Below are positions 53,597 to 64,000 of a stretch of DNA of 64,000 bases, piece after piece. The stretch spans positions 124,001-188,000 of the forward strand of contig NZ_CP128400.1 in assembly GCF_030389965.1 (NCBI RefSeq). Reading direction: 5' to 3'. The notes under the pieces are model-generated. The model ran no database searches, was not told where the DNA came from, and saw only the letters and a program-made list of their open reading frames with translations. Each line of letters opens with the position of its first letter. Position 1 is the stretch's first letter. The stretch is from Candidatus Chlorohelix allophototropha. GTDB lineage: Bacteria; Chloroflexota; Chloroflexia; Chloroheliales; Chloroheliaceae. The position numbers and the translations under genes are program-made.

Positions 53597-54787
53597 CTAC
53601 TTTACGTTTGCGCCTACAGCACTATCCCAGCTTTTGGTGATCAGGGCAGTAGCCTTGCTGTACTGATCAAGGGTAGGGAACTGAGCGGTGGCGTAGTTTG
53701 CAGCGGGGGGTAGCTTGGCGGCTACATCCGCAGGAATGGCATTGCGGCTTGCCAAATCGTTATAGCGAATCGGGTGGCAATAGCCCTTCAGCCAGCCAAG
53801 TTGTCCGGCATCGGAGTAGAGATATTCCATCCAAAGTTTGGCGGCATTAGGATGGGGAGCATAGGCGCTGATGGCTTGTACGTAAACGCCAGCCAGCACA
53901 CCTTTGGTCGGCACTACAACGGAGACTGGTGGGTTGCCCTTCAACGAGTCCTTAGCAGCCAAGGCATTGTAATCCCAGCCGAGTACGATGGGGGTTTCGC
54001 CAGAAGCAAGAGTGGCGCCTTTAGCGATTACCGGCACGAAGTTGCCAGCTTTATTTAAGCTAGCGAAGAAGTCAATACCGGCTTGGGCATTGTCGAGTGA
54101 ACCACCCTGAGCTAGAGCAACTGCATATACACCTGCGATAGCTTGAGCGGCGGTGCGTGGGTCGCCGGACAATGCAACTTTGCCCTTGTATTCGGGTTTA
54201 AGTAGGTCTGCCCATTCCGCCGGGGGGTTCTTTACCACGTCGGTGTTGACAGACATTGCCATTACGCCATAGTAATCGCCATACCAATAGCCTTCTGCAT
54301 CTTTGGCAGTGTCGGGGATGGTAGCCCAAGTGGAAACCTTGTAGGGCTGAATTAGGTTAGCGGCTTTAGCTTGAGGACCGAACGACAGACCGACATCGAT
54401 TACGTCTGGCGCCTGAGGACCTTTGTTCTGAGTATTGGCTTTGATTGCCTCGATTTCGTCACCGGAGCTACCGTCGGGATTAAGCTCGGTCACCTGTAAG
54501 CCGTATTTCTGCTTGAAATTGGTGATTAAATCACCGTAACCACACCAGTCGTGCGGTAAAGCGATGGTCGTTAGTGAACCTTCTTGCTTGGCAGCCGCCA
54601 CAAGCTGATCCAAATTTGCAGCTTGAGTGGTTCCAGCCACGGGACTCTTAGCAGCGGTGGTAGCAGTTGCAGCAGTGGTAGCCGGTACGGGTGTTGCGGT
54701 GTTATCACCACAAGCCGAAAGAACTAGGGTCATAATTGCGGTAAGAACCAGAGTCATTCTCAAATGACTGGTTTTGCGTTTAAGCAC
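53597..54787 (-). CDS. Lipoprotein solute-binding protein, candidate phosphonate binder
   Basis: A 396-residue binding protein starting at GTG 54787, with AGGAGGAG about eight bases upstream. Lipoprotein signal (LVLSAC, Cys at about residue 26), a Thr/Ala linker, then a type-2 binding domain (LDQLVAAAKQEGSLTTIALPHDWCGYGDLITNFKQKYGLQVTELNPDGSS; YWYGDYYGVMAMSVNTDVVKNPPAEWADLLKPEYKGKVALSGDP) like the iron/spermidine/2-aminoethylphosphonate binders (SBP_bac_6/13). The phosphonate assignment rests on location next to the C-P lyase operon. The residues around the lipidated Cys (ACGDNTATPVPATTAA) are identical to those of the liv binding protein. Confidence 0.85.
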   Translation of the reverse strand: MLKRKTSHLRMTLVLTAIMTLVLSACGDNTATPVPATTAATATTAAKSPVAGTTQAANLDQLVAAAKQEGSLTTIALPHDWCGYGDLITNFKQKYGLQVTELNPDGSSGDEIEAIKANTQNKGPQAPDVIDVGLSFGPQAKAANLIQPYKVSTWATIPDTAKDAEGYWYGDYYGVMAMSVNTDVVKNPPAEWADLLKPEYKGKVALSGDPRTAAQAIAGVYAVALAQGGSLDNAQAGIDFFASLNKAGNFVPVIAKGATLASGETPIVLGWDYNALAAKDSLKGNPPVSVVVPTKGVLAGVYVQAISAYAPHPNAAKLWMEYLYSDAGQLGWLKGYCHPIRYNDLASRNAIPADVAAKLPPAANYATAQFPTLDQYSKATALITKSWDSAVGANVK

Positions 54788-55781: not shown

Positions 55782-56390
55782 CTATTTTGCCGATAAAGTA
55801 TAGCTTTTTATAATTCGCCAGTTCATATAACACCAGTAATCCTGCGCATCCCATTCGCCCGGTTTCTGCAAGTTAAACTCAACCAATTGCACAATATTGC
55901 CCCACAGGCTTTCTTGTGGCATTGTCCGGTAAAGCTCCAAGCAAAAAGCCTTTATTTGGTGTAACAAGCCTGTATCGGAAGGTAAGTCGCTGAAAGCTAG
56001 AGTCATGTGCGGATTATATCTGGTTGAAGCTCGCCTCTTTCGTCCGTATTCGCTCAAAAAGGGCAGTAATTCCTCCCGAATATTTGCTTGCAAATTCACT
56101 AAATCGGGATGCTTTTCCATTTCCAACCGGATAAAATATTCGGTCTCCAGCCTGAAAGCTAACGGAAAGGCTTTATGACCGGGCAGAATCCGGTCAAGGG
56201 CAGCAATTAACTCGTTTTCCCCAAATCCCTCTTCTAGGTGTAATAAAGCAAAGAGAGTACAATGCGGCATAAATTTCCCAGCCGCTTCTAGCCCATAATT
56301 TTGCTTGAGTAATAGATGAGCTAACCCAATTTTATAAGCCAACTCAGGGGGTGGGATGAAATAAACCCCATAAGTTTTCTGCCCCGTCAT
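55782..56390 (-). CDS. 2H (LigT-like) phosphoesterase, candidate PhnP replacement
   Basis: A 202-residue protein with the two His-x-Thr motifs of the 2H family: PHCTLF near residue 43 and PHMTLAF near residue 128. The start YGVYFIPPPELAYKIGLAHLL resembles DUF1045-type phosphonate-operon proteins, but full membership is not proven. 2H enzymes open or form cyclic phosphate esters. The C-P lyase pathway yields a 5-phosphoribosyl 1,2-cyclic phosphate that PhnP opens in E. coli; no phnP is seen here. Placement 18 bases after phnM makes this a candidate for that step. Confidence 0.8.
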   Translation of the reverse strand: MTGQKTYGVYFIPPPELAYKIGLAHLLLKQNYGLEAAGKFMPHCTLFALLHLEEGFGENELIAALDRILPGHKAFPLAFRLETEYFIRLEMEKHPDLVNLQANIREELLPFLSEYGRKRRASTRYNPHMTLAFSDLPSDTGLLHQIKAFCLELYRTMPQESLWGNIVQLVEFNLQKPGEWDAQDYWCYMNWRIIKSYTLSAK

Positions 56391-56408: not shown

Positions 56409-57698
56409 TCATTTCTTGCCCAAGCTTTGTGTGAGAGGGGCTAGGGATGAAGGTTGGGCAGAAAAATGATGCGCGTCAGGATAAGCCGCAAGCGATGAAA
56501 CTGAAACGGGTTTTCCGCTTATCAGCAACTTGCGGACAATGTAGAGTTGGGGTTTAGTCCGAGTTTCCACCACGATTAAATCCGCCAACAAACCGGGTTC
56601 AAGGCTGCCTGTTACTTTCTCTAACCCCACTACTTTGGCTGCGTTTGTTGTTACAAGCTTAACAGCTTCAACAAGACTCATGACTTTTTGTTCAACCAGC
56701 ATAAAAATGGCATGCAGCAGGGTGGAAGGCGCGTAATCTGCTACCAACACATCCAGCAGGTTTTGCTGGATAAATTCCATCACGCTGATATTACCGGTAT
56801 GCGAACCGCCTCTGACAATATTGGGAGACCCTGCAATAACCGGGAGACCAAGTTCTTTGGCGCGGGTGGCTGCCTCTAGATTAATCGGAAATTCGCAGAC
56901 CCTTATACCTCGTCGGTATAAGTCATTTACAGTAGCGGCGCTATCATCATCATGTCCGGCTATAATAATTCCGGGCGTATTTTGTAACAAAGCGGTAGCT
57001 TGATTTAATTGGTGTTCACGAATTTGTTCGGTCTGTGCCTTTAGTTGCCACAACTCATTTTCGCGTGCATCAACTACCTCTTCACTGTTCCCCGCCGGAC
57101 CTAGCAGCGATTTTATCATCTTGCGTAAAACCGGACGTTGGGCATACTGACCCTGTCCGGGCGAATGGTCATTGAGGGACAAATAGTGCGTGAGTTCGGC
57201 GGCAAGAGGGTTTTGCATCACTCTTAAAATCCCATCGAAAGCCCCCGCACTACGCAAATCGCAGCGATAAAGGAGATGATGATGGAGAAAGGCAAAATCA
57301 GAATTGCTGAATTCTAGCAACTGGTTTGCCATTGCTTCGGCATTCGCCACAGTGCGGTCGCGTAGAAATATACCCGCATCAAAAGAAACAGCATGATAGG
57401 TTCTGGTTACTCCGGCGGTAGCCAACGCCCCTTCCATCTGGTGAAAAGCCAGTTCAGGCGGTAAAAAGACTCCTTTTCGCGGCTGCAAAGTTTTCTCATA
57501 GCTGTCATCATGCAAGTTTATAACGCCCGGCATAATGAAATTGCCTTTGGCATCCAATGTATGAGAATTAGCAGGGTACAGGCGTTCATTTATTTCAACA
57601 ATTCTGCCCGCCTCTATAACAACGCTTCCAGCATCCAAAACCTTTTCGGGGGTAACCAACCGCCCATTGGTAATAATTGTGGTTTGGGAAGGTTCCAC
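56409..57698 (-). CDS. phnM: Alpha-D-ribose 1-methylphosphonate 5-triphosphate diphosphatase
   Basis: A 429-residue amidohydrolase that removes pyrophosphate from the ribosyl phosphonate triphosphate made by PhnGHIL. Family hallmarks are FIMPGVINLHDDSYEKTLQPRKGVFLPPELAFHQMEGALATAGVTRTYHAVSFD, HHHLLYRCD, IIAGHDDDSA and GSPNIVRGGSHTGNISV. Metal ligands come from LHDD and the later His residues. The start is GTG at 57698 with AAAGGAAA upstream. It lies 14 bases after phnL. Confidence 0.95.
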   Translation of the reverse strand: MEPSQTTIITNGRLVTPEKVLDAGSVVIEAGRIVEINERLYPANSHTLDAKGNFIMPGVINLHDDSYEKTLQPRKGVFLPPELAFHQMEGALATAGVTRTYHAVSFDAGIFLRDRTVANAEAMANQLLEFSNSDFAFLHHHLLYRCDLRSAGAFDGILRVMQNPLAAELTHYLSLNDHSPGQGQYAQRPVLRKMIKSLLGPAGNSEEVVDARENELWQLKAQTEQIREHQLNQATALLQNTPGIIIAGHDDDSAATVNDLYRRGIRVCEFPINLEAATRAKELGLPVIAGSPNIVRGGSHTGNISVMEFIQQNLLDVLVADYAPSTLLHAIFMLVEQKVMSLVEAVKLVTTNAAKVVGLEKVTGSLEPGLLADLIVVETRTKPQLYIVRKLLISGKPVSVSSLAAYPDAHHFSAQPSSLAPLTQSLGKK

Positions 57699-57712
57699 TT
57701 AATTTCCTTTCT

Positions 57713-58417
57713 CTAAACCAATAACCGCCCATACTCCATTGTTATAACTTTGTCGGATAGGCGATTGAGCAATGCCCTGTCATGAAAAACACCGATGATG
57801 GTAACCCCGGACTGTTTGGCTTCTTCTAGAAGTGAAATTACAACCGATTGATTGCGGTCATCGAGGGCAGAGGTTGGCTCATCAAGTAGTAATAAGCGGG
57901 GTTGTCGGATGAGCGCTTGCGCGATATTAACCCGTTGCTGTTCACCGCCACTGAAAAAAACCGGATAACCCTCCCACAATTCGGAACTGATACCGAGCCG
58001 TTCCAGCATAACCTGCGCTCTCTCGGTCGCTTCTGGGCGAGGAACTCCAGCGTTAAGCAACGGGCGTGCCACCAATTCCAGAGCGGTTGTGCGGGGTTGC
58101 GCTCGTAGGAACTGAGAAACAAAGCCTATCTCGGAACCGCGCAAGCGTGTTATCTGCCTTGCGCTGGACTGTGCTAGGTCAATAACGGCATTATTTTCGA
58201 GACGATATATTATTTCACCACTGCTGGCAACATAAGTTCCGAAGATACATTTCAAGATAGAACTTTTGCCGCTGCCACTCAGCCCGGCTATGCCCACGAA
58301 AAGGCCTCTTTCGACTTCAAACGAAATGCCCTTAAAAGCGTTTATTTGCTTCCCACGCAAAATGTGCTGCGTGAAAACCTTACTCAAATTATTTATCTGG
58401 ATGTGTGTATTTTGCAT
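57713..58417 (-). CDS. phnL: C-P lyase ATP-binding protein PhnL
   Basis: A 234-residue ABC-type ATPase, not a transporter part. Walker A is AGLSGSGKSS (residues 44-53), signature FSGGEQQRVNIAQAL, Walker B LLLLDEPTSALDDRNQ and switch IIGVFHDRALLNRLSDKVI. In E. coli PhnL is needed with PhnGHI to attach the phosphonate to the ribose of ATP. It lies 10 bases after phnK. Confidence 0.93.
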   Translation of the reverse strand: MQNTHIQINNLSKVFTQHILRGKQINAFKGISFEVERGLFVGIAGLSGSGKSSILKCIFGTYVASSGEIIYRLENNAVIDLAQSSARQITRLRGSEIGFVSQFLRAQPRTTALELVARPLLNAGVPRPEATERAQVMLERLGISSELWEGYPVFFSGGEQQRVNIAQALIRQPRLLLLDEPTSALDDRNQSVVISLLEEAKQSGVTIIGVFHDRALLNRLSDKVITMEYGRLLV

Positions 58418-58427
58418 AGCTGCCCAC

Positions 58428-59306
58428 TTAACTATTACTGGAACTAACCAATAACTGGGTGTAGGGATGTTGCGGGTCTTCCAGTATTTGGTCAGTCAAT
58501 CCATTTTCCACTACTCGTCCGTTTTTCATCACCAAAGTGCGCTCGCTTAACAAGCGGATTACGCCCAAGTCGTGGGAAACCACTACAATCGCCACGCCAC
58601 TCTCACGCTGCACCTCTTTTACTAAGTCAATAACCCCCGCTTGTACTGAAACATCCAAGCCGGTGGTCATCTCATCCAACAAGAGCAAGACGGGATGATT
58701 CGCCAAAGCCTTTGCGATTTGAACACGCTGCTGCATGCCGCCGCTGAAAAAAGCCGGGTAATGATCCATCCGATTTAGCGGCACTTCCATTCGGTTCAAC
58801 AAAGCCCCGGAGCGTTCCCTGATTTCAGCCACATTGCGCCACTCTGCCGCCAAAAGTCTCTCCGCAATGTTACCGCCTGCCGTAATGTGCAAGTGCAAAC
58901 CCTGTGCCGGGTTCTGACGTACCATACCCATCACAAAATCCTGTAGATAACGCGCTTGCTGACTACTGGCTTGGAATATATCTTGTCGCCCATTCCCGAA
59001 GGATTTTAGAAAAGCCTGTCCCTTGGAGGGTGCTACATCCCCGTAGAGGCAGCGCAACAGTGTGGTTTTACCGCTACCGCTTTCTCCCACCACGCCTAGA
59101 ATCTCACCCTCGTACACCTCAAAATTAACATCGGCGCAAGCCACCAGCGTACCGCAATTGGAACAAGTATTAGAGTCTGTTTCCGGTCCGGTTAACTCTA
59201 GGCAGCGCGGACAACCGTGTCCGTAAATACGGGTGAGATTTTCAACCACCAACAAGGGGGTCTCCACCTCCACGTTTGTTTGTTTTGGGGCTGTTTCGGT
59301 TATCAT
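58428..59306 (-). CDS. phnK: C-P lyase ATP-binding protein PhnK with a four-Cys insertion
   Basis: A 292-residue ABC-type ATPase binding the PhnGHIJ core. Walker A is GESGSGKT (residues 74-81), signature FSGGMQQRVQIAKAL, and the C-terminus is PQHPYTQLLVSS. Before Walker A there is an extra segment with paired Cys (Cys32, Cys35, Cys48, Cys51: CPRC and CSNC), which looks like a zinc ribbon or metal site; to my knowledge E. coli PhnK lacks it. It starts inside the phnJ stop (ATGA), so translation is coupled. Confidence 0.93.
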   Translation of the reverse strand: MITETAPKQTNVEVETPLLVVENLTRIYGHGCPRCLELTGPETDSNTCSNCGTLVACADVNFEVYEGEILGVVGESGSGKTTLLRCLYGDVAPSKGQAFLKSFGNGRQDIFQASSQQARYLQDFVMGMVRQNPAQGLHLHITAGGNIAERLLAAEWRNVAEIRERSGALLNRMEVPLNRMDHYPAFFSGGMQQRVQIAKALANHPVLLLLDEMTTGLDVSVQAGVIDLVKEVQRESGVAIVVVSHDLGVIRLLSERTLVMKNGRVVENGLTDQILEDPQHPYTQLLVSSSNS

Positions 59307-60196
59307 CCGGCGAACTCCTTTTGCATTTCACGCTCTGCTGCTTTCTTTGCGACTCGTTCATCGCAGTAGGCGGTGTCCGAACACATATAGGTCTTTTGCC
59401 CTGCCTCGGTGGTTATCTCATCCAAGAAAGAGTGTTCCGCTCCGCAACGCTGGCAGCGTATCCCGTGGAAATCCTCTACAGTGAAGGGGTAATCCTCGAA
59501 ATCGAGTGGTATTACCGCAGTACGCGGCGGAACCGCATACAACCTTTTTTCGCGTCCTGCCCCGAACAGCGAAAGATGCTCAGCGTTGTGAAGTTTCTCC
59601 ACATCCCAACGTGGGATTGGGCTAGGAGCCATCACATACCGTCCATTCACCATTACAGGGTAACTGTAGGCACGCGCTAAAAGCCCATGCTTTACAATTT
59701 CTTCGTATAACGCCACCCACATTCGGCTGTAATTCTTATCGGCATGCATTCGCCGTGTGGCGTTTTCGGAGCGTTCCACCAAACGCAATGGCTCTGGCAA
59801 TGGAACTTGCAAGACTAACAATTGTCCCGCCTGCATTTTTTCTTCTGGAATGCGGTGGCGGGTTTGGATTATAGTGGCTTCGGTAGTTTGGAAGGTGGTG
59901 GTAACGTCTGGTGCGGTGCGCTCAATCAGGCGGCGAATGTTGGCAGCATTAACTCCCGCGTCAGTTCCCTGATCAATTACTTTAACTATATCTCCCTGCC
60001 CGATTAGAGAAAGAGTTATTTGCAGACCGCCAGTACCCCAACCGCGCCCGATGGGTAATTCTCGCGAACCGAATGGCACTTGGTATCCGGGTATGGCAAC
60101 GGCTTTAAGTAAGTTGCGCCGGATTTCTCTTTTGCTGCCTTCATCTAGGAAAGCGTAATTATAATTTTCTTCGGTGGTAATTAAATCTTTCAGCAT
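59303..60196 (-). CDS. phnJ: C-P lyase, alpha-D-ribose 1-methylphosphonate 5-phosphate C-P-lyase
   Basis: A 297-residue radical-SAM-type enzyme that cuts the carbon-phosphorus bond. The C-terminal cysteine set is Cys248, Cys251, Cys272 and Cys278 (CQRC, then MCSDTAYC), matching the family pattern. Other hallmarks are FLDEGSKREIRRNLLKAVAIPGYQVPFGSRELPIGRGWGTGGLQ and MWVALYEEIVKHG. The start shares one base with the phnI stop (TAATG). Confidence 0.97.
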   Translation of the reverse strand: MLKDLITTEENYNYAFLDEGSKREIRRNLLKAVAIPGYQVPFGSRELPIGRGWGTGGLQITLSLIGQGDIVKVIDQGTDAGVNAANIRRLIERTAPDVTTTFQTTEATIIQTRHRIPEEKMQAGQLLVLQVPLPEPLRLVERSENATRRMHADKNYSRMWVALYEEIVKHGLLARAYSYPVMVNGRYVMAPSPIPRWDVEKLHNAEHLSLFGAGREKRLYAVPPRTAVIPLDFEDYPFTVEDFHGIRCQRCGAEHSFLDEITTEAGQKTYMCSDTAYCDERVAKKAAEREMQKEFAG

Positions 60197-61326
60197 TACT
60201 TTTTCCTTGCTTCCGCAGCATATGCCAAGCGGGTTTCTTCGCGAGAGCGGTCAAGACTGGACTGGAAGGTAACATAGTGTGGCAACTTTAGATGCTCTAC
60301 AAACCCACTCGATTCAACGCTGTCTATGTGATAAAGCACAAATTCTTGGTCGCTGCTAGGGGCATCTCCGCCTATGTCCATCGCTCTATCTAGGATAGAC
60401 ATCGAAATCGCTTTGCGTTCGTTCTGTCCATAAACCAAGCCATAGCCTAGCTCATACAATGGCTCGGCTTTTTCTTCATTATTGTTTGTCGATTCTTGTT
60501 GCGCAATTCCGTCTTTATCCCGACCCACAATACTGTAGTCGTGGTTTAAGGCTTCTACTTCCGTAACCCGCAACTGCCCTATTGTGACCGGATTACCGGT
60601 GAGTGGATGCAAAAACTCGACCGGAACTTTCCCGTAGCGCAATTCCGAAATGGTAGGATGAACCATCCCATAGCCACGCAACGAACTATAGCCTAACGCC
60701 ACCATCGCTCCCGTTTCGCCCCGTGCTAATGTTTGCAACCGAGCGGAACGAGGGGCGGGAAATTTCAGCGTATCTCTGGTGATGTCAAAAGGTTCTTGCT
60801 CAGAAGGGGCGAGTGCGGTAAGCAAGCCTTCCGCCCGTAACAAGTCTGAAACCCTTGAAAACTTGGGCATGTCTGTTGTCGCTTTTGGTTGCTGGAAGGC
60901 AGATTCAGGGGCGCGAATTTCTTCTATGAGATTGAAATCAAGTAGGCGCTGAGTGTAATCGCGCGTACGACCAAGCACTTGACCACCGGGGATATTTTTA
61001 AACGCGCTGGAAATTCGCCGCAAAACTTTCATTCGGCTTGTATCAATCGGCAAGGAGTAGCCCAATCGCTCTAGGGTGGACTTATAAGCGCGGAGTAAAA
61101 ACCCCGCCTCCATCAAATCCCCTTCTGCCTGTTTTAAAGCCAACGCTGCCAACTTTTCGTCATACAATCCGGCTTCGCTCATTACCTGATCTACCGCCAT
61201 ACGTTGTTGCTCAATAAGCTGGTCTATTTGCAATAGTTCGCTATGACATTGCAATCTGCCGAGTTTTACCAGTTCCTCAGCGGCAAGGATTGCATCTATA
61301 CCGCCTTTTACCGCTACGTAACCCAT
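60196..61326 (-). CDS. phnI: C-P lyase core subunit PhnI
   Basis: A 376-residue core subunit; with PhnG, PhnH and PhnL it replaces the adenine of ATP by the phosphonate (nucleosidase activity). Diagnostic phrases are MGYVAVKGGIDAILAAEELVKLGRL, TRDTLKFPAPRSARLQTLARGETGAMVALGYSSLRGYGMVHPTISELRYG and EFVLYHIDSVESSGFVEHLKLPHYVTFQ. The C-terminus is basic (RKK). It begins one base after phnH ends. Confidence 0.97.
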   Translation of the reverse strand: MGYVAVKGGIDAILAAEELVKLGRLQCHSELLQIDQLIEQQRMAVDQVMSEAGLYDEKLAALALKQAEGDLMEAGFLLRAYKSTLERLGYSLPIDTSRMKVLRRISSAFKNIPGGQVLGRTRDYTQRLLDFNLIEEIRAPESAFQQPKATTDMPKFSRVSDLLRAEGLLTALAPSEQEPFDITRDTLKFPAPRSARLQTLARGETGAMVALGYSSLRGYGMVHPTISELRYGKVPVEFLHPLTGNPVTIGQLRVTEVEALNHDYSIVGRDKDGIAQQESTNNNEEKAEPLYELGYGLVYGQNERKAISMSILDRAMDIGGDAPSSDQEFVLYHIDSVESSGFVEHLKLPHYVTFQSSLDRSREETRLAYAAEARKK

Positions 61327-62007
61327 CTAAAAATCCTCCCCTATTCGTCCCTCTTCCAGAATGGACAGGCGGGTGCTGCGTGGCAGACCGACCAATACAC
61401 CTCCCGGAGTTAGCCAGAAAACATCTATGCCCAGAGGGTAAGCGGCATTGACCTCTCCAAGAGAAACAAAAAAGGTGGCGTTTGTGCCTGCCACCCAGAG
61501 TCTTTGTCCAAGTTTTACGCCGGGTCCGCTCAATTCCAGTAAAGCGCCTTTCTTACCTTCCGGGTTTTCTCCCAACAGGTCGGGTACTAGGCATATAAGG
61601 GTTGCGGACGAGTCAGGGTAAATAAGGTTACCGGGCTTTAGCTGAGCAGGTAGCGAAGCAACCGGAGGCTGTAGAGTAAACACATAATCGGCTTTGTCCC
61701 GAGGAACACTGCGACAATTGGCGCTTGTGCAAATTACGCTTGAAAGGTCGGCAGCAATTGTTTCATCGCCCAATAAGCAAAAAGTAACTTCATGGTCTAA
61801 GATGGTTGCGAGAAATGCGCCCAACGTTTCAAAGTGGGCGTAATTCCGGGAAGAATTAGGTAAAGTGTTCCCAAAGAAATCCCCGGTCTTGGGTAAATGG
61901 AAAACCTGACCGGGGTTTGCCAATGCATCCAACATTACTCGGAAAATTTTCTGACTGTCACGGGTGTGGTCAAAACGGCGGGCGGGTGTTAATGAAATAG
62001 CGCTCAA
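61327..62007 (-). CDS. phnH: C-P lyase core subunit PhnH
   Basis: A 226-residue core subunit. The TTG at 62007 is chosen as start: GGAGG (62015-62019), inside the end of phnG, lies 7 bases upstream, and this gives ISLTPARRFDHTRDSQKIFRVMLDALANPGQVFHLP, the usual N-terminus. Starting at 62061 would add 18 unrelated residues. The start lies just after the phnG stop (62010-62012), so translation is coupled. Confidence 0.92.
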   Translation of the reverse strand: MSAISLTPARRFDHTRDSQKIFRVMLDALANPGQVFHLPKTGDFFGNTLPNSSRNYAHFETLGAFLATILDHEVTFCLLGDETIAADLSSVICTSANCRSVPRDKADYVFTLQPPVASLPAQLKPGNLIYPDSSATLICLVPDLLGENPEGKKGALLELSGPGVKLGQRLWVAGTNATFFVSLGEVNAAYPLGIDVFWLTPGGVLVGLPRSTRLSILEEGRIGEDF

Positions 62008-62009
62008 GC

Positions 62010-62435
62010 TCAAGCCTCCATTTCGTCGAAATTTACTTTGGTAGCCGCGATTGTTGCCCACTCTGCGGCATCTTTTTCTTGCTGGAGTTGTGACATTAAG
62101 GTCAACGTTTCCAGTATATCCGGTGAAAGCGGATGGGATGCTTCCAAAGCAGCGTCACAAATAGCTCCGGCGAGGGCGTGCATCCGGTCGCTGCCGAGAA
62201 CTAGCATGTATCCCGTTCCGCCCTGAAGTTGCACCTCCGCTTCCGTTACAAGGGCTTCCCCGAAGTTAAATATTTCACCTTTGGCAGTTTCGCGAGCGCG
62301 AATCATCATTATCGCCGGGTGAGGTTGCCGAGTTATTTCTAGTTCAATTCCTGAATCCAGCAAGCGGTCAGCCATCACCACCAGAGGCTCAGATGGGCCG
62401 GCTGCCATTATTTCAAAGCGTTTTTCTCTATCCAT
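62010..62435 (-). CDS. phnG: C-P lyase core subunit PhnG
   Basis: A 141-residue core subunit, first gene of the phn operon. MVMADRLL-type N-terminal region, then EAEVQLQGGTGYMLVLGSDRMHALAGAICDAALEA, the family signature. It begins with ATG at 62435, about 50 bases after the predicted transcript start. The leader has only a weak AAAGG ribosome site. Confidence 0.94.
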   Translation of the reverse strand: MDREKRFEIMAAGPSEPLVVMADRLLDSGIELEITRQPHPAIMMIRARETAKGEIFNFGEALVTEAEVQLQGGTGYMLVLGSDRMHALAGAICDAALEASHPLSPDILETLTLMSQLQQEKDAAEWATIAATKVNFDEMEA

Positions 62436-62467
62436 TTTGGCTTACAAACCTTTTTATGTTATTATTT

Positions 62468-62491
62468 AATTGCGTAAAGCTTTACGCAATT
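62468..62491. promoter_or_regulatory. Perfect 24-bp palindrome, candidate operator
   Basis: Half-site AATTGCGTAAAG (62468-62479) is followed directly by its exact complement (62480-62491). It lies immediately after the -10 box of the phnG promoter and covers the expected transcript start. It also lies 45 bases before the divergent regulator. Length, symmetry and place fit a LacI-family operator. Confidence 0.85.
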
Positions 62492-62520
62492 TTTATAGCA
62501 TTCAAAAACAGTCCTGTCAA
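62492..62520 (-). promoter_or_regulatory. Promoter of the phn operon
   Basis: Read on the minus strand: TTGACA (62520-62515), a 17-base spacer (62514-62498) and TATAAA (62497-62492). The predicted start near 62485 falls inside the palindrome, so a bound repressor would block it. Confidence 0.8.
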
Positions 62521-62535
62521 TAGCGAATTTTGAAA

Positions 62536-64000
62536 ATGATAAAATCAGAAGATGGGAAAGAACGGCTGGTTTTGGCTATAAACCCCGTAATAGGACACAA
62601 CCTAGTCAGCCAAGCTGATAAAATAAAGACCCTAGAACAATACCTTGAGCAGGTGTTGGAGATCCCTGTACAGGTTGGGTTGTGGGAAAATTACGAAGAA
62701 ACCCTAAACGGTATGGAGCGCGGAGAAATTGATGCGGCTCGATTGGGGTTATATGCCTTTGCTCAGGCGCAGGCTCGTTTTGGGGCGCGTGCTCTCGCCA
62801 ACGCTATTGAGGTTTCTGCCGGAGACAATGCCCCACCAGTGCCTTACCGGAGCGTTATCTTTACTCGTAAGGATACAGGGATTGTCGGGTTAATCCAATT
62901 AAAAGGACAGGAATTTGGTTTTGTTGACCGAAATTCGTCAACAGGCTACCTAGTGCCTTCTCTCATGCTGGATCAGGCAGGCTTAAAGCCTGCTACCGAC
63001 CTAAAACCACATTTCTTACTAGGTCATAATACAGTGGTAGAGGCTGTTTGCCAAGGAAAACTGTTTGCCGGAGCGACGATGCAATCAGCCTACTTGCACC
63101 ATTTACAAGAACACCCCACTTGCAGTTTGCAGTTGCTGGCTACTTCCCCACTTCTATCCAGAGGACCGGTGGCAGTTCGACCGGGGTTGCCCCCCCGGCT
63201 TGAGCATAAATTATTGCAAGCATTGGTACAGCTAGACCAGCGTGTACCGGAAGCAGCCTCATTACTTATTCCTACCAACCAACGCTTTACCCCAGCAGCA
63301 CAACGTGAAATGACCCTGAAAACCGTGGCGGAATTAGCCGGGGTGAGTTATGGGACTGTATCTCGCGCTATAAACGGGCGCGCCCGGATTGCTCCAGACA
63401 CGACTGCTCGCATTTTAAAACTGGTGGAAGAATTGGGTTACCGTCCCAACTCAAATGCTCGCAACTTACACCAGAATCGGGGCGATTTAATTGGGCTGCT
63501 CATACCCACTTTGCAGATTCCCGCACTGGATGAGATCGTAGCCGGAATACAGGCAGTATTCAGTGAAGTAGGTTTGCAATTGGTGGTATGTCCAGCGGTT
63601 TTAAACGGAATGGCGGGGGAGAGCAGAAAAGCTTTTTTTGAACTGCTGTATAACAACCGTCTGGAAGGTATGATAATGACCCAGTATGATGCGGCTACTA
63701 GGGAAGCCGGTGAATTGGCGCGGAGTGGACGACCTTATGCTTTGTTAGAACAGGATTTGTTAGGAGAAGGTCTTATTACTGCCAGAAATTGGATAGAGGT
63801 ACAGGGACACCACCGTATAGCCTTAGTACAAGAACAGGGTTCGTTGCTGGAAGCAGGTTTCATGCGTCAAGTCTTCGCCCGACAAGCTGCTCCAGAACTA
63901 GAATTTACCGAAGAAATCAACACTATTTCTAGCTGGCTAGAAACAATTTTGCAAAAACCGGAGCCGCCTACCCTTATTTTCTGTTCAGGCGACCGAACTG
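62536..64000 (+). CDS. PhnD-like domain fused to a LacI-family regulator, partial
   Basis: The frame is open from ATG 62536 to the window end: 488 residues and still open. Residues about 10-245 match the PhnD phosphonate-binding family (LEQYLEQVLEIPVQVGLWENYEETLNGMERGEIDAARLG; PYRSVIFTRKDTGI; GQEFGFVDRNSSTGYLVPSLML; LLATSPLLSRGPVAVRP). There is no signal peptide, so it is cytoplasmic. Residues about 259-314 are a LacI helix-turn-helix (MTLKTVAELAGVSYGTVSRAINGRARIAPDTTARILKLVEELGYRPN). A LacI-type sensor domain then starts (LIGLLIPTLQIPALDEIVAGIQAVFSEVG). No ribosome site is visible. Probably a phosphonate-sensing repressor of phnG and of itself. Confidence 0.88.
   Translation, partial: MIKSEDGKERLVLAINPVIGHNLVSQADKIKTLEQYLEQVLEIPVQVGLWENYEETLNGMERGEIDAARLGLYAFAQAQARFGARALANAIEVSAGDNAPPVPYRSVIFTRKDTGIVGLIQLKGQEFGFVDRNSSTGYLVPSLMLDQAGLKPATDLKPHFLLGHNTVVEAVCQGKLFAGATMQSAYLHHLQEHPTCSLQLLATSPLLSRGPVAVRPGLPPRLEHKLLQALVQLDQRVPEAASLLIPTNQRFTPAAQREMTLKTVAELAGVSYGTVSRAINGRARIAPDTTARILKLVEELGYRPNSNARNLHQNRGDLIGLLIPTLQIPALDEIVAGIQAVFSEVGLQLVVCPAVLNGMAGESRKAFFELLYNNRLEGMIMTQYDAATREAGELARSGRPYALLEQDLLGEGLITARNWIEVQGHHRIALVQEQGSLLEAGFMRQVFARQAAPELEFTEEINTISSWLETILQKPEPPTLIFCSGDRT

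What the first reader, a model, noticed from the sequence alone, without database searches (positions are those of the whole stretch)
62468..62520. 24-bp perfect palindrome at the start point of the phn promoter
A perfect palindrome of 24 bp is very unlikely by chance in this position. It follows directly a TTGACA-17-TATAAA promoter for phnG and sits between phnG and the divergent hybrid regulator. A -35/-10-like pair for the regulator (TTGCGT 62470-62475, TATAGC 62494-62499) also overlaps it. One site could therefore control both directions.
Basis: partly seen in the sequence, partly recalled or inferred. Interest (0 to 1): 0.8.

Follow-up and report, generated by a model that had tools for sequence, protein, structure and literature searches.

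The report
Operator of a phosphonate-sensing hybrid repressor
A perfect 24-letter mirror sequence sits at the start point of a phosphonate-degradation operon, and the same sequence recurs in distant relatives that carry the same unusual regulator, so it is very probably that regulator's docking site.

Summary
In detail: AATTGCGTAAAGCTTTACGCAATT (62468-62491) is the only perfect palindrome over 16 bp in the window (about 0.004 expected) and directly follows TTGACA-17-TATAAA of the phnG promoter. The divergent gene encodes a PhnD-like phosphonate-binding domain fused to a LacI-type regulator. Among 400 genomes of the phylum, the exact 16-bp core GCGTAAAGCTTTACGC occurs in six, precisely the six carrying this hybrid (one split into two ORFs). 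Five belong to another class. The carriers hold ten sites (eight exact, two with one mismatch), all at phosphonate genes; one lies 575 kb from its regulator. At eight of ten, the core starts 4-6 bp after the -10 box of a TTGAC[A/T]-17/18 promoter; the other two lie in the first codons of phnD. Eighteen phn-bearing genomes without the hybrid have no exact site. Best reading: a lac-O1-like operator bound by the hybrid, repressing until the PhnD domain binds a phosphonate. Co-occurrence and geometry are shown; binding, ligand and sign are inferred. Control of the regulator's own promoter from this site is possible but weakly supported. New variant of a known kind: LacI logic with a grafted phosphonate sensor and a GC-centred operator.

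The parts
62468..62491 (.). 24-bp perfect palindrome AATTGCGTAAAGCTTTACGCAATT, the proposed operator; the part conserved in relatives is GCGTAAAGCTTTACGC (62472-62487)
   Evidence: conserved core
62492..62497 (-). -10 box TATAAA of the phnG promoter, abutting the palindrome
   Evidence: (read from sequence)
62515..62520 (-). -35 box TTGACA of the phnG promoter, 17-bp spacer
   Evidence: shuffle P 0.00025
62437..62465 (+). possible regulator promoter TTGGCT-17-TATTAT in mirror geometry to the palindrome (weak)
   Evidence: 9/12, shuffle P 0.02; not conserved in relatives
62530..63999 (+). PhnD-LacI hybrid regulator gene (starts TTG 62530 or ATG 62536; runs past the window end, 562 aa from the ATG)
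   Evidence: PF12974 29-244, PF00356 260-305, weak PF13377 423-542
62010..62435 (-). phnG, first gene of the controlled C-P lyase operon
   Evidence: PF06754 96 bits
61327..62061 (-). phnH (ORF start as listed; overlaps phnG)
   Evidence: PF05845 116.8 bits
60196..61326 (-). phnI
   Evidence: PF05861 447.6 bits
59303..60196 (-). phnJ
   Evidence: PF06007 449.8 bits
57713..59306 (-). two ABC ATPase genes in the places of phnK and phnL
   Evidence: PF00005 in both; names by position
56409..57698 (-). phnM-like gene
   Evidence: NF011990 310.7 bits over cut-off, TIGR02318 305.1 bits under its cut-off

Best explanation
The palindrome is the operator of the divergently encoded PhnD-LacI hybrid. A dimer of the hybrid binds it through its LacI helix-turn-helix. 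Because the conserved part lies at about -3 to +15 of the phn promoter, bound protein blocks RNA polymerase, as at lac O1. When a phosphonate (or a related oxyanion) reaches the cytosol and closes the PhnD-like clamp, the protein lets go and the C-P lyase operon is expressed. Shown here: the palindrome, the promoter geometry, the domain make-up, and the strict co-occurrence of site and hybrid across two classes. Inferred: that the hybrid binds the site, that it represses, and that a phosphonate is the inducer. Autoregulation from the same site is possible, not shown.
For: Exact core in 6 of 400 phylum genomes, the same 6 that encode the hybrid (probability of that match by random placement 1.8e-13, which ignores that five carriers are related). 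Ten sites in carriers, ten at phosphonate genes, one of them 575 kb from its regulator and 63 bp before a PhnX-like/HpnW operon. Eight of ten have TTGAC[A/T]-17/18--10 box with the core 4-6 bp downstream, in loci of two classes. No exact site in 18 phn-bearing genomes without the hybrid: 15 and 3 (sites; hybrid absence). HTH plus hinge 72-86% identical, against 48-53% and 33-43% for the flanking domains. Pocket residues of PtxB retained.
Against: The centre is GC, whereas 1173 of 1251 even LacI-family motifs have CG (PMC4052901). The five other carriers belong to one family, so they are not five independent cases. Ligand, direction of the response and binding are untested. The second phn cluster beside the regulator has no site. 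Two sites (G391, G369) lie in the start of phnD without a clear promoter.
Confidence: 0.85

Rival explanations
1. The site belongs to a different transcription factor, encoded elsewhere, that travelled together with the hybrid as part of phosphonate gene clusters.
For: GC centre is unusual for the LacI family; other phosphonate regulators known are PhnF and LysR types.
Against: The hybrid is the only regulator that I see shared by the six loci (ORF lists, by eye from protein starts). 18 phn-bearing genomes without the hybrid lack the site. The HTH is the best-conserved part.
Confidence: 0.08
2. The hybrid binds the site but activates, or represses when the phosphonate is bound, or responds to phosphate or phosphite rather than phosphonate.
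For: PhnD/PtxB-type domains bind phosphite or phosphate as well as phosphonates (PMC5700983 passages); no ligand was tested.
Against: A core at about -3 to +15 fits blocking, not activation. The targets are catabolic and uptake genes, which usually are induced by their substrate (family knowledge). The position that I read as the capping tyrosine, which gives phosphite specificity in PtxB, is Gly in all 5 aligned hybrids (alignment reading).
Confidence: 0.2
3. The palindrome acts as RNA, as a terminator or leader hairpin.
For: On the plus strand it is followed by TTTTT, and that RNA folds better than its shuffles (-13.6 kcal/mol, z -3.9).
Against: In relatives no T run follows the core, and the two relatives tested (of five) fold no better than shuffles (z -1.2 and -0.3). 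No plus-strand gene ends just upstream.
Confidence: 0.02
4. A chance palindrome.
For: None beyond the fact that 6 Mb of sequence would hold about 0.4 such palindromes somewhere (scaled).
Against: Position at the promoter, and recurrence at phosphonate genes in exactly the hybrid carriers.
Confidence: 0.005

Closest known systems
lac repressor and lac operator O1 (LacI/GalR family)
   Same: LacI-type HTH with hinge, LacI-like C-terminal domain, perfect or near-perfect even palindrome at the transcription start of the target operon; inner half-site letters GTAA agree with common LacI-family half-sites (recalled, from no call).
   Different: HTH is internal, behind a phosphonate-binding domain; operator centre GC instead of CG; C-terminal domain weak in Pfam (24.1 bits, cut-off 26.5).
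PhnD / PtxB periplasmic binding proteins (PF12974, TIGR01098)
   Same: PF12974 domain over its cut-off with the Ser/Thr-Ser/Thr and His oxyanion residues kept.
   Different: No signal peptide, cytosolic, fused to a DNA-binding protein; capping tyrosine position is Gly (alignment reading).
PhnF (GntR-type repressor) and PhnR/AepR/PalR (LysR types) of phosphonate genes
   Same: Local regulators of phosphonate uptake or catabolism genes, several of them divergently encoded (PMC10574752 passages).
   Different: Different DNA-binding families; the word 'LacI' does not occur in that review.

Membership tests
LacI/GalR regulators | LacI-type HTH (PF00356) over its cut-off | tested here: met
   55.3 bits, cut-off 27
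LacI/GalR regulators | HTH at the very N-terminus | tested here: not met
   HTH at residues 260-305, behind a PF12974 domain; in G357 alone a separate ORF starts with it
LacI/GalR regulators | C-terminal periplasmic-binding-like domain | tested here: inconclusive
   PF13377 24.1 bits, cut-off 26.5; PF00532 29.8 bits over its cut-off 22.2 in the G310 hybrid
LacI/GalR regulators | Even palindromic operator near the start of target genes | tested here: met
   Even core in six genomes, at promoters in 8 of 10 sites
LacI/GalR regulators | CG pair at the operator centre (common, not universal: 1173 of 1251 even motifs) | tested here: not met
   Centre is GC at all ten sites read in the direction of the catabolic genes or its complement, with one flanking mismatch in G391 and G369; frequency from PMC4052901
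LacI/GalR regulators | Specific binding to the operator and release by a ligand | not testable with these tools
   needs protein and DNA
PhnD/PtxB binding proteins | PF12974 domain with the STS-H oxyanion motif | tested here: met
   150 bits, cut-off 27; S134, S/T135, T/S136, H164 in 5 of 5 aligned hybrids
PhnD/PtxB binding proteins | Export signal and partnership with an ABC transporter | tested here: not met
   N-terminus MIKSEDGKERLV is not a signal peptide by reading; domain is fused to an HTH

The most novel reading that the evidence does not exclude
A transporter-type phosphonate clamp (PhnD) has been captured in the cytosol as the sensor of a LacI-type repressor, making a two-sensor, one-component switch with its own GC-centred operator that gates C-P lyase, phosphonate uptake and a PhnX-like/HpnW pathway in two classes of this phylum; in G357 sensor and DNA-binding part are two neighbouring ORFs that may work as a pair.
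Probability: 0.6. Interest if true: 0.7.

Novelty: new variant of a known kind. Interest (0 to 1): 0.6.

Why it matters
It would give a dedicated phosphonate switch whose sensor, operator and promoter are all named, and a natural fusion of a type-II binding protein with a LacI-type repressor. It offers a direct handle on when these bacteria turn on C-P lyase, the enzyme that releases methane from methylphosphonate. The review read in passages (PMC10574752) and seven keyword searches of the paper library (listings only) showed no description of such a regulator; that is a limited search.

Tried and rejected
Rejected: chance palindrome; terminator or RNA hairpin; a wider regulon in this genome (near-sites all inside reading frames); a site at the second phn cluster (a lone half-site-like GCGTAAAA before phnC is no better than others inside coding DNA). 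The ten 1-mismatch hits in hybrid-less genomes are as many as the reversed-pattern control gives (11 genomes); 8 lie inside reading frames, 2 (G374, G114) between genes, none at phosphonate genes.

Led nowhere: the GTDB r220 scan with exact peptides found one LacI relative only and missed the known hybrids; plasmids gave no match; the 40 nearest relatives hold no hybrid. Other phyla were therefore not properly examined.

Rows left out: the split G357 regulator is not in the alignment (5 of 6 carriers) nor in the identity figures. In one search at most 3 candidates per genome were scored, so a much diverged hybrid could have been missed; searches scored more in the two relevant classes. Two of five relatives were folded.

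Full report
What is there. The palindrome AATTGCGTAAAGCTTTACGCAATT occupies 62468-62491, in the 94-bp gap between phnG (minus strand, start 62435) and a divergent regulator gene (plus strand, start 62530 or 62536). It is the only perfect palindrome above 16 bp in the window; 0.004 of 24 bp or more are expected. Reading towards phnG, the order is TTGACA (62515-62520), 17 bp, TATAAA (62492-62497), palindrome. If transcription starts 7 bp after the -10 box, the 18-bp conserved part covers about -3 to +15.

The regulator. The gene runs past the window end and encodes 562 aa from the ATG. Residues 29-244 match PF12974 (phosphonate-binding protein, 150 bits), 260-305 match PF00356 (LacI HTH, 55 bits), and the rest is a diverged LacI-type domain (PF13377, 24.1 bits against a cut-off of 26.5). 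NCBIfam puts the first part in the phosphate/phosphite/phosphonate binding-protein subfamily TIGR01098, over its cut-off. By reading, there is no signal peptide. The closest solved chain is PtxB. Its oxyanion motif S124, T125, S126, H155 and hinge Y94 (PMC5700983, passages) align with S134, S135, T136, H164 and Y104; S134, Y104 and H164 are invariant in the 5 unsplit hybrids, and 135-136 are always Ser or Thr. The position that I read as PtxB's capping tyrosine is Gly in all 5 (alignment reading, an inference).

The operon and its neighbours. Downstream of phnG on the minus strand are phnH, phnI, phnJ, two ABC ATPases and a phnM-like gene. On the other side, past the regulator and a transposase gene with terminal repeats alike at 16 of 18 bases, lies a second cluster with phnC, phnE, phnD and another phnG-to-phnJ set. 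PhnJ and PhnI of the second cluster are 66-81% identical to those compared in relatives; those of the palindrome-controlled operon are only 50-57% identical to any compared. No site with up to 4 core mismatches lies in that second cluster.

Relatives of the regulator. Among the 40 nearest relatives and all 158 genomes of the class, own included, no other hybrid was found. Among 400 genomes of the phylum, six have it: this one and five in one family of another class. Four of the five are full length (43-50% identity over the alignment; 45-52% in the search). One, G357, is split into two neighbouring ORFs at the domain boundary. In that class 5 of 47 genomes carry it.

The same site in the relatives. 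All five carry the core GCGTAAAGCTTTACGC. A scan of the same 400 genomes for the core alone found exact copies in six genomes, the same six, and in none of the other 394. Ten of those 394 have one 1-mismatch match each; the reversed control pattern has matches in eleven genomes. In the own class of 158 only this genome has an exact core; four others have a 1-mismatch match. Of phn-bearing genomes without the hybrid, 15 in the first set and 3 of the 7 in the other class (G255, G324, G363), none has an exact core. One of them, G002, has a 1-mismatch match, inside a reading frame.

Where the sites lie. Own: phnG | regulator. G380: phnE | regulator. G310: phnC | regulator, and a second site 575 kb away, 63 bp before a PhnX-like gene (best hit TIGR03351, just under its cut-off) followed by an HpnW gene (TIGR03364, over its cut-off). 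G357: before phnC, and between the PhnX-like/HpnW operon and the regulator. G391 and G369: phnC | regulator (one mismatch each), and within the first codons of phnD (exact). That makes ten sites, eight exact and two with one mismatch, ten of ten at phosphonate genes. One further 1-mismatch hit in G357 lies inside an unrelated reading frame.

Promoter geometry. Towards the catabolic or uptake genes, eight of ten sites have TTGACA or TTGACT, a 17- or 18-bp spacer and a -10 box (TATAAA, TACAAC, TACAAA, TAAAAA or CAAAAT) ending 4-6 bp before the core; shuffles reach the scores with P from 0.00025 to 0.026 per site. In the opposite direction seven of these eight are unremarkable (P 0.16-0.88); the exception is the window itself (TTGGCT-17-TATTAT, P 0.02). 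The two phnD sites have no clear promoter (P 0.14 and 0.46). The regulator's start is 42 bp from the core here and 154-223 bp in the relatives. So a block on the catabolic and uptake promoters is the constant feature; two-way control is possible here but not general.

Mechanism. HTH plus hinge is 72-86% identical between this hybrid and the four unsplit relatives, against 48-53% in the PhnD domain and 33-43% in the C-terminal domain, as expected if all read the same operator. Binding as a dimer, blocking of polymerase, and release when the PhnD domain binds a phosphonate are inferences from family knowledge. The GC centre departs from the usual CG (1173 of 1251 even LacI-family motifs; another 49 have a different pair and 29 a degenerate one; PMC4052901, passages). 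The hybrid is thus a LacI-family regulator by its HTH, with an atypical architecture and an atypical operator.

Rivals. A different regulator as the binder is not excluded but has no candidate gene shared by the six loci (read by eye). An RNA role is unlikely: the T run after the palindrome and the strong fold are peculiar to the window. Sign and ligand remain open.

Novelty. Phosphonate regulators named in the review PMC10574752 (passages) are the Pho system, PhnF, LysR types and CbrAB/NtrBC; 'LacI' does not occur there. Searches of the paper library (listings only) did not show a PhnD-LacI regulator. I call it a new variant of a known kind.

Noticed in passing
L006:4396-5279 (window coordinates 64396-65279, just beyond the window end): An insertion sequence (transposase of 264 aa, terminal repeats alike at 16 of 18 bases) lies between the hybrid regulator and phnC of the second phn cluster; it may have cut off a former shared control.
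   Followed up: partly
window 56409-62435 and L006:5350-14655: Two complete-looking C-P lyase clusters stand back to back; the operator-controlled one is divergent (50-57% identity in PhnJ/PhnI), the other resembles that of relatives (66-81%).
   Followed up: partly
L108:6178-7895 (G357): The hybrid is split exactly at the domain boundary into a PhnD-like ORF and a LacI-like ORF five bases apart, with both operators kept; split pair, ancestral state or decay is open.
   Followed up: partly
L106:6788-6803 and L107:6228-6243 (G391, G369): The exact operator core lies inside codons 3-8 or so of phnD, between phnE and phnD, 2.4-2.5 kb from the phnC site; perhaps a second operator inside a gene, as lac O2 in lacZ (recalled).
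   Followed up: partly
window 55782-56390: A 2H-phosphoesterase-like protein (PF13563, PF07823) follows phnM; similar-looking proteins stand beside the hybrid in G391 and G369 (L106:12749, L107:10743; by eye). It may open the cyclic phosphate made by C-P lyase.
   Followed up: no
window 53597-54787: Solute-binding lipoprotein-like gene on the same strand, weakly like 2-aminoethylphosphonate-binding proteins (PhnS, well under cut-off).
   Followed up: no
whole genome G000: Five contigs, two of them 2,961,161 and 2,453,413 bases; from memory this fits Candidatus Chlorohelix allophototropha, a phototroph of the Chloroflexota. No call confirms the name.
   Followed up: no
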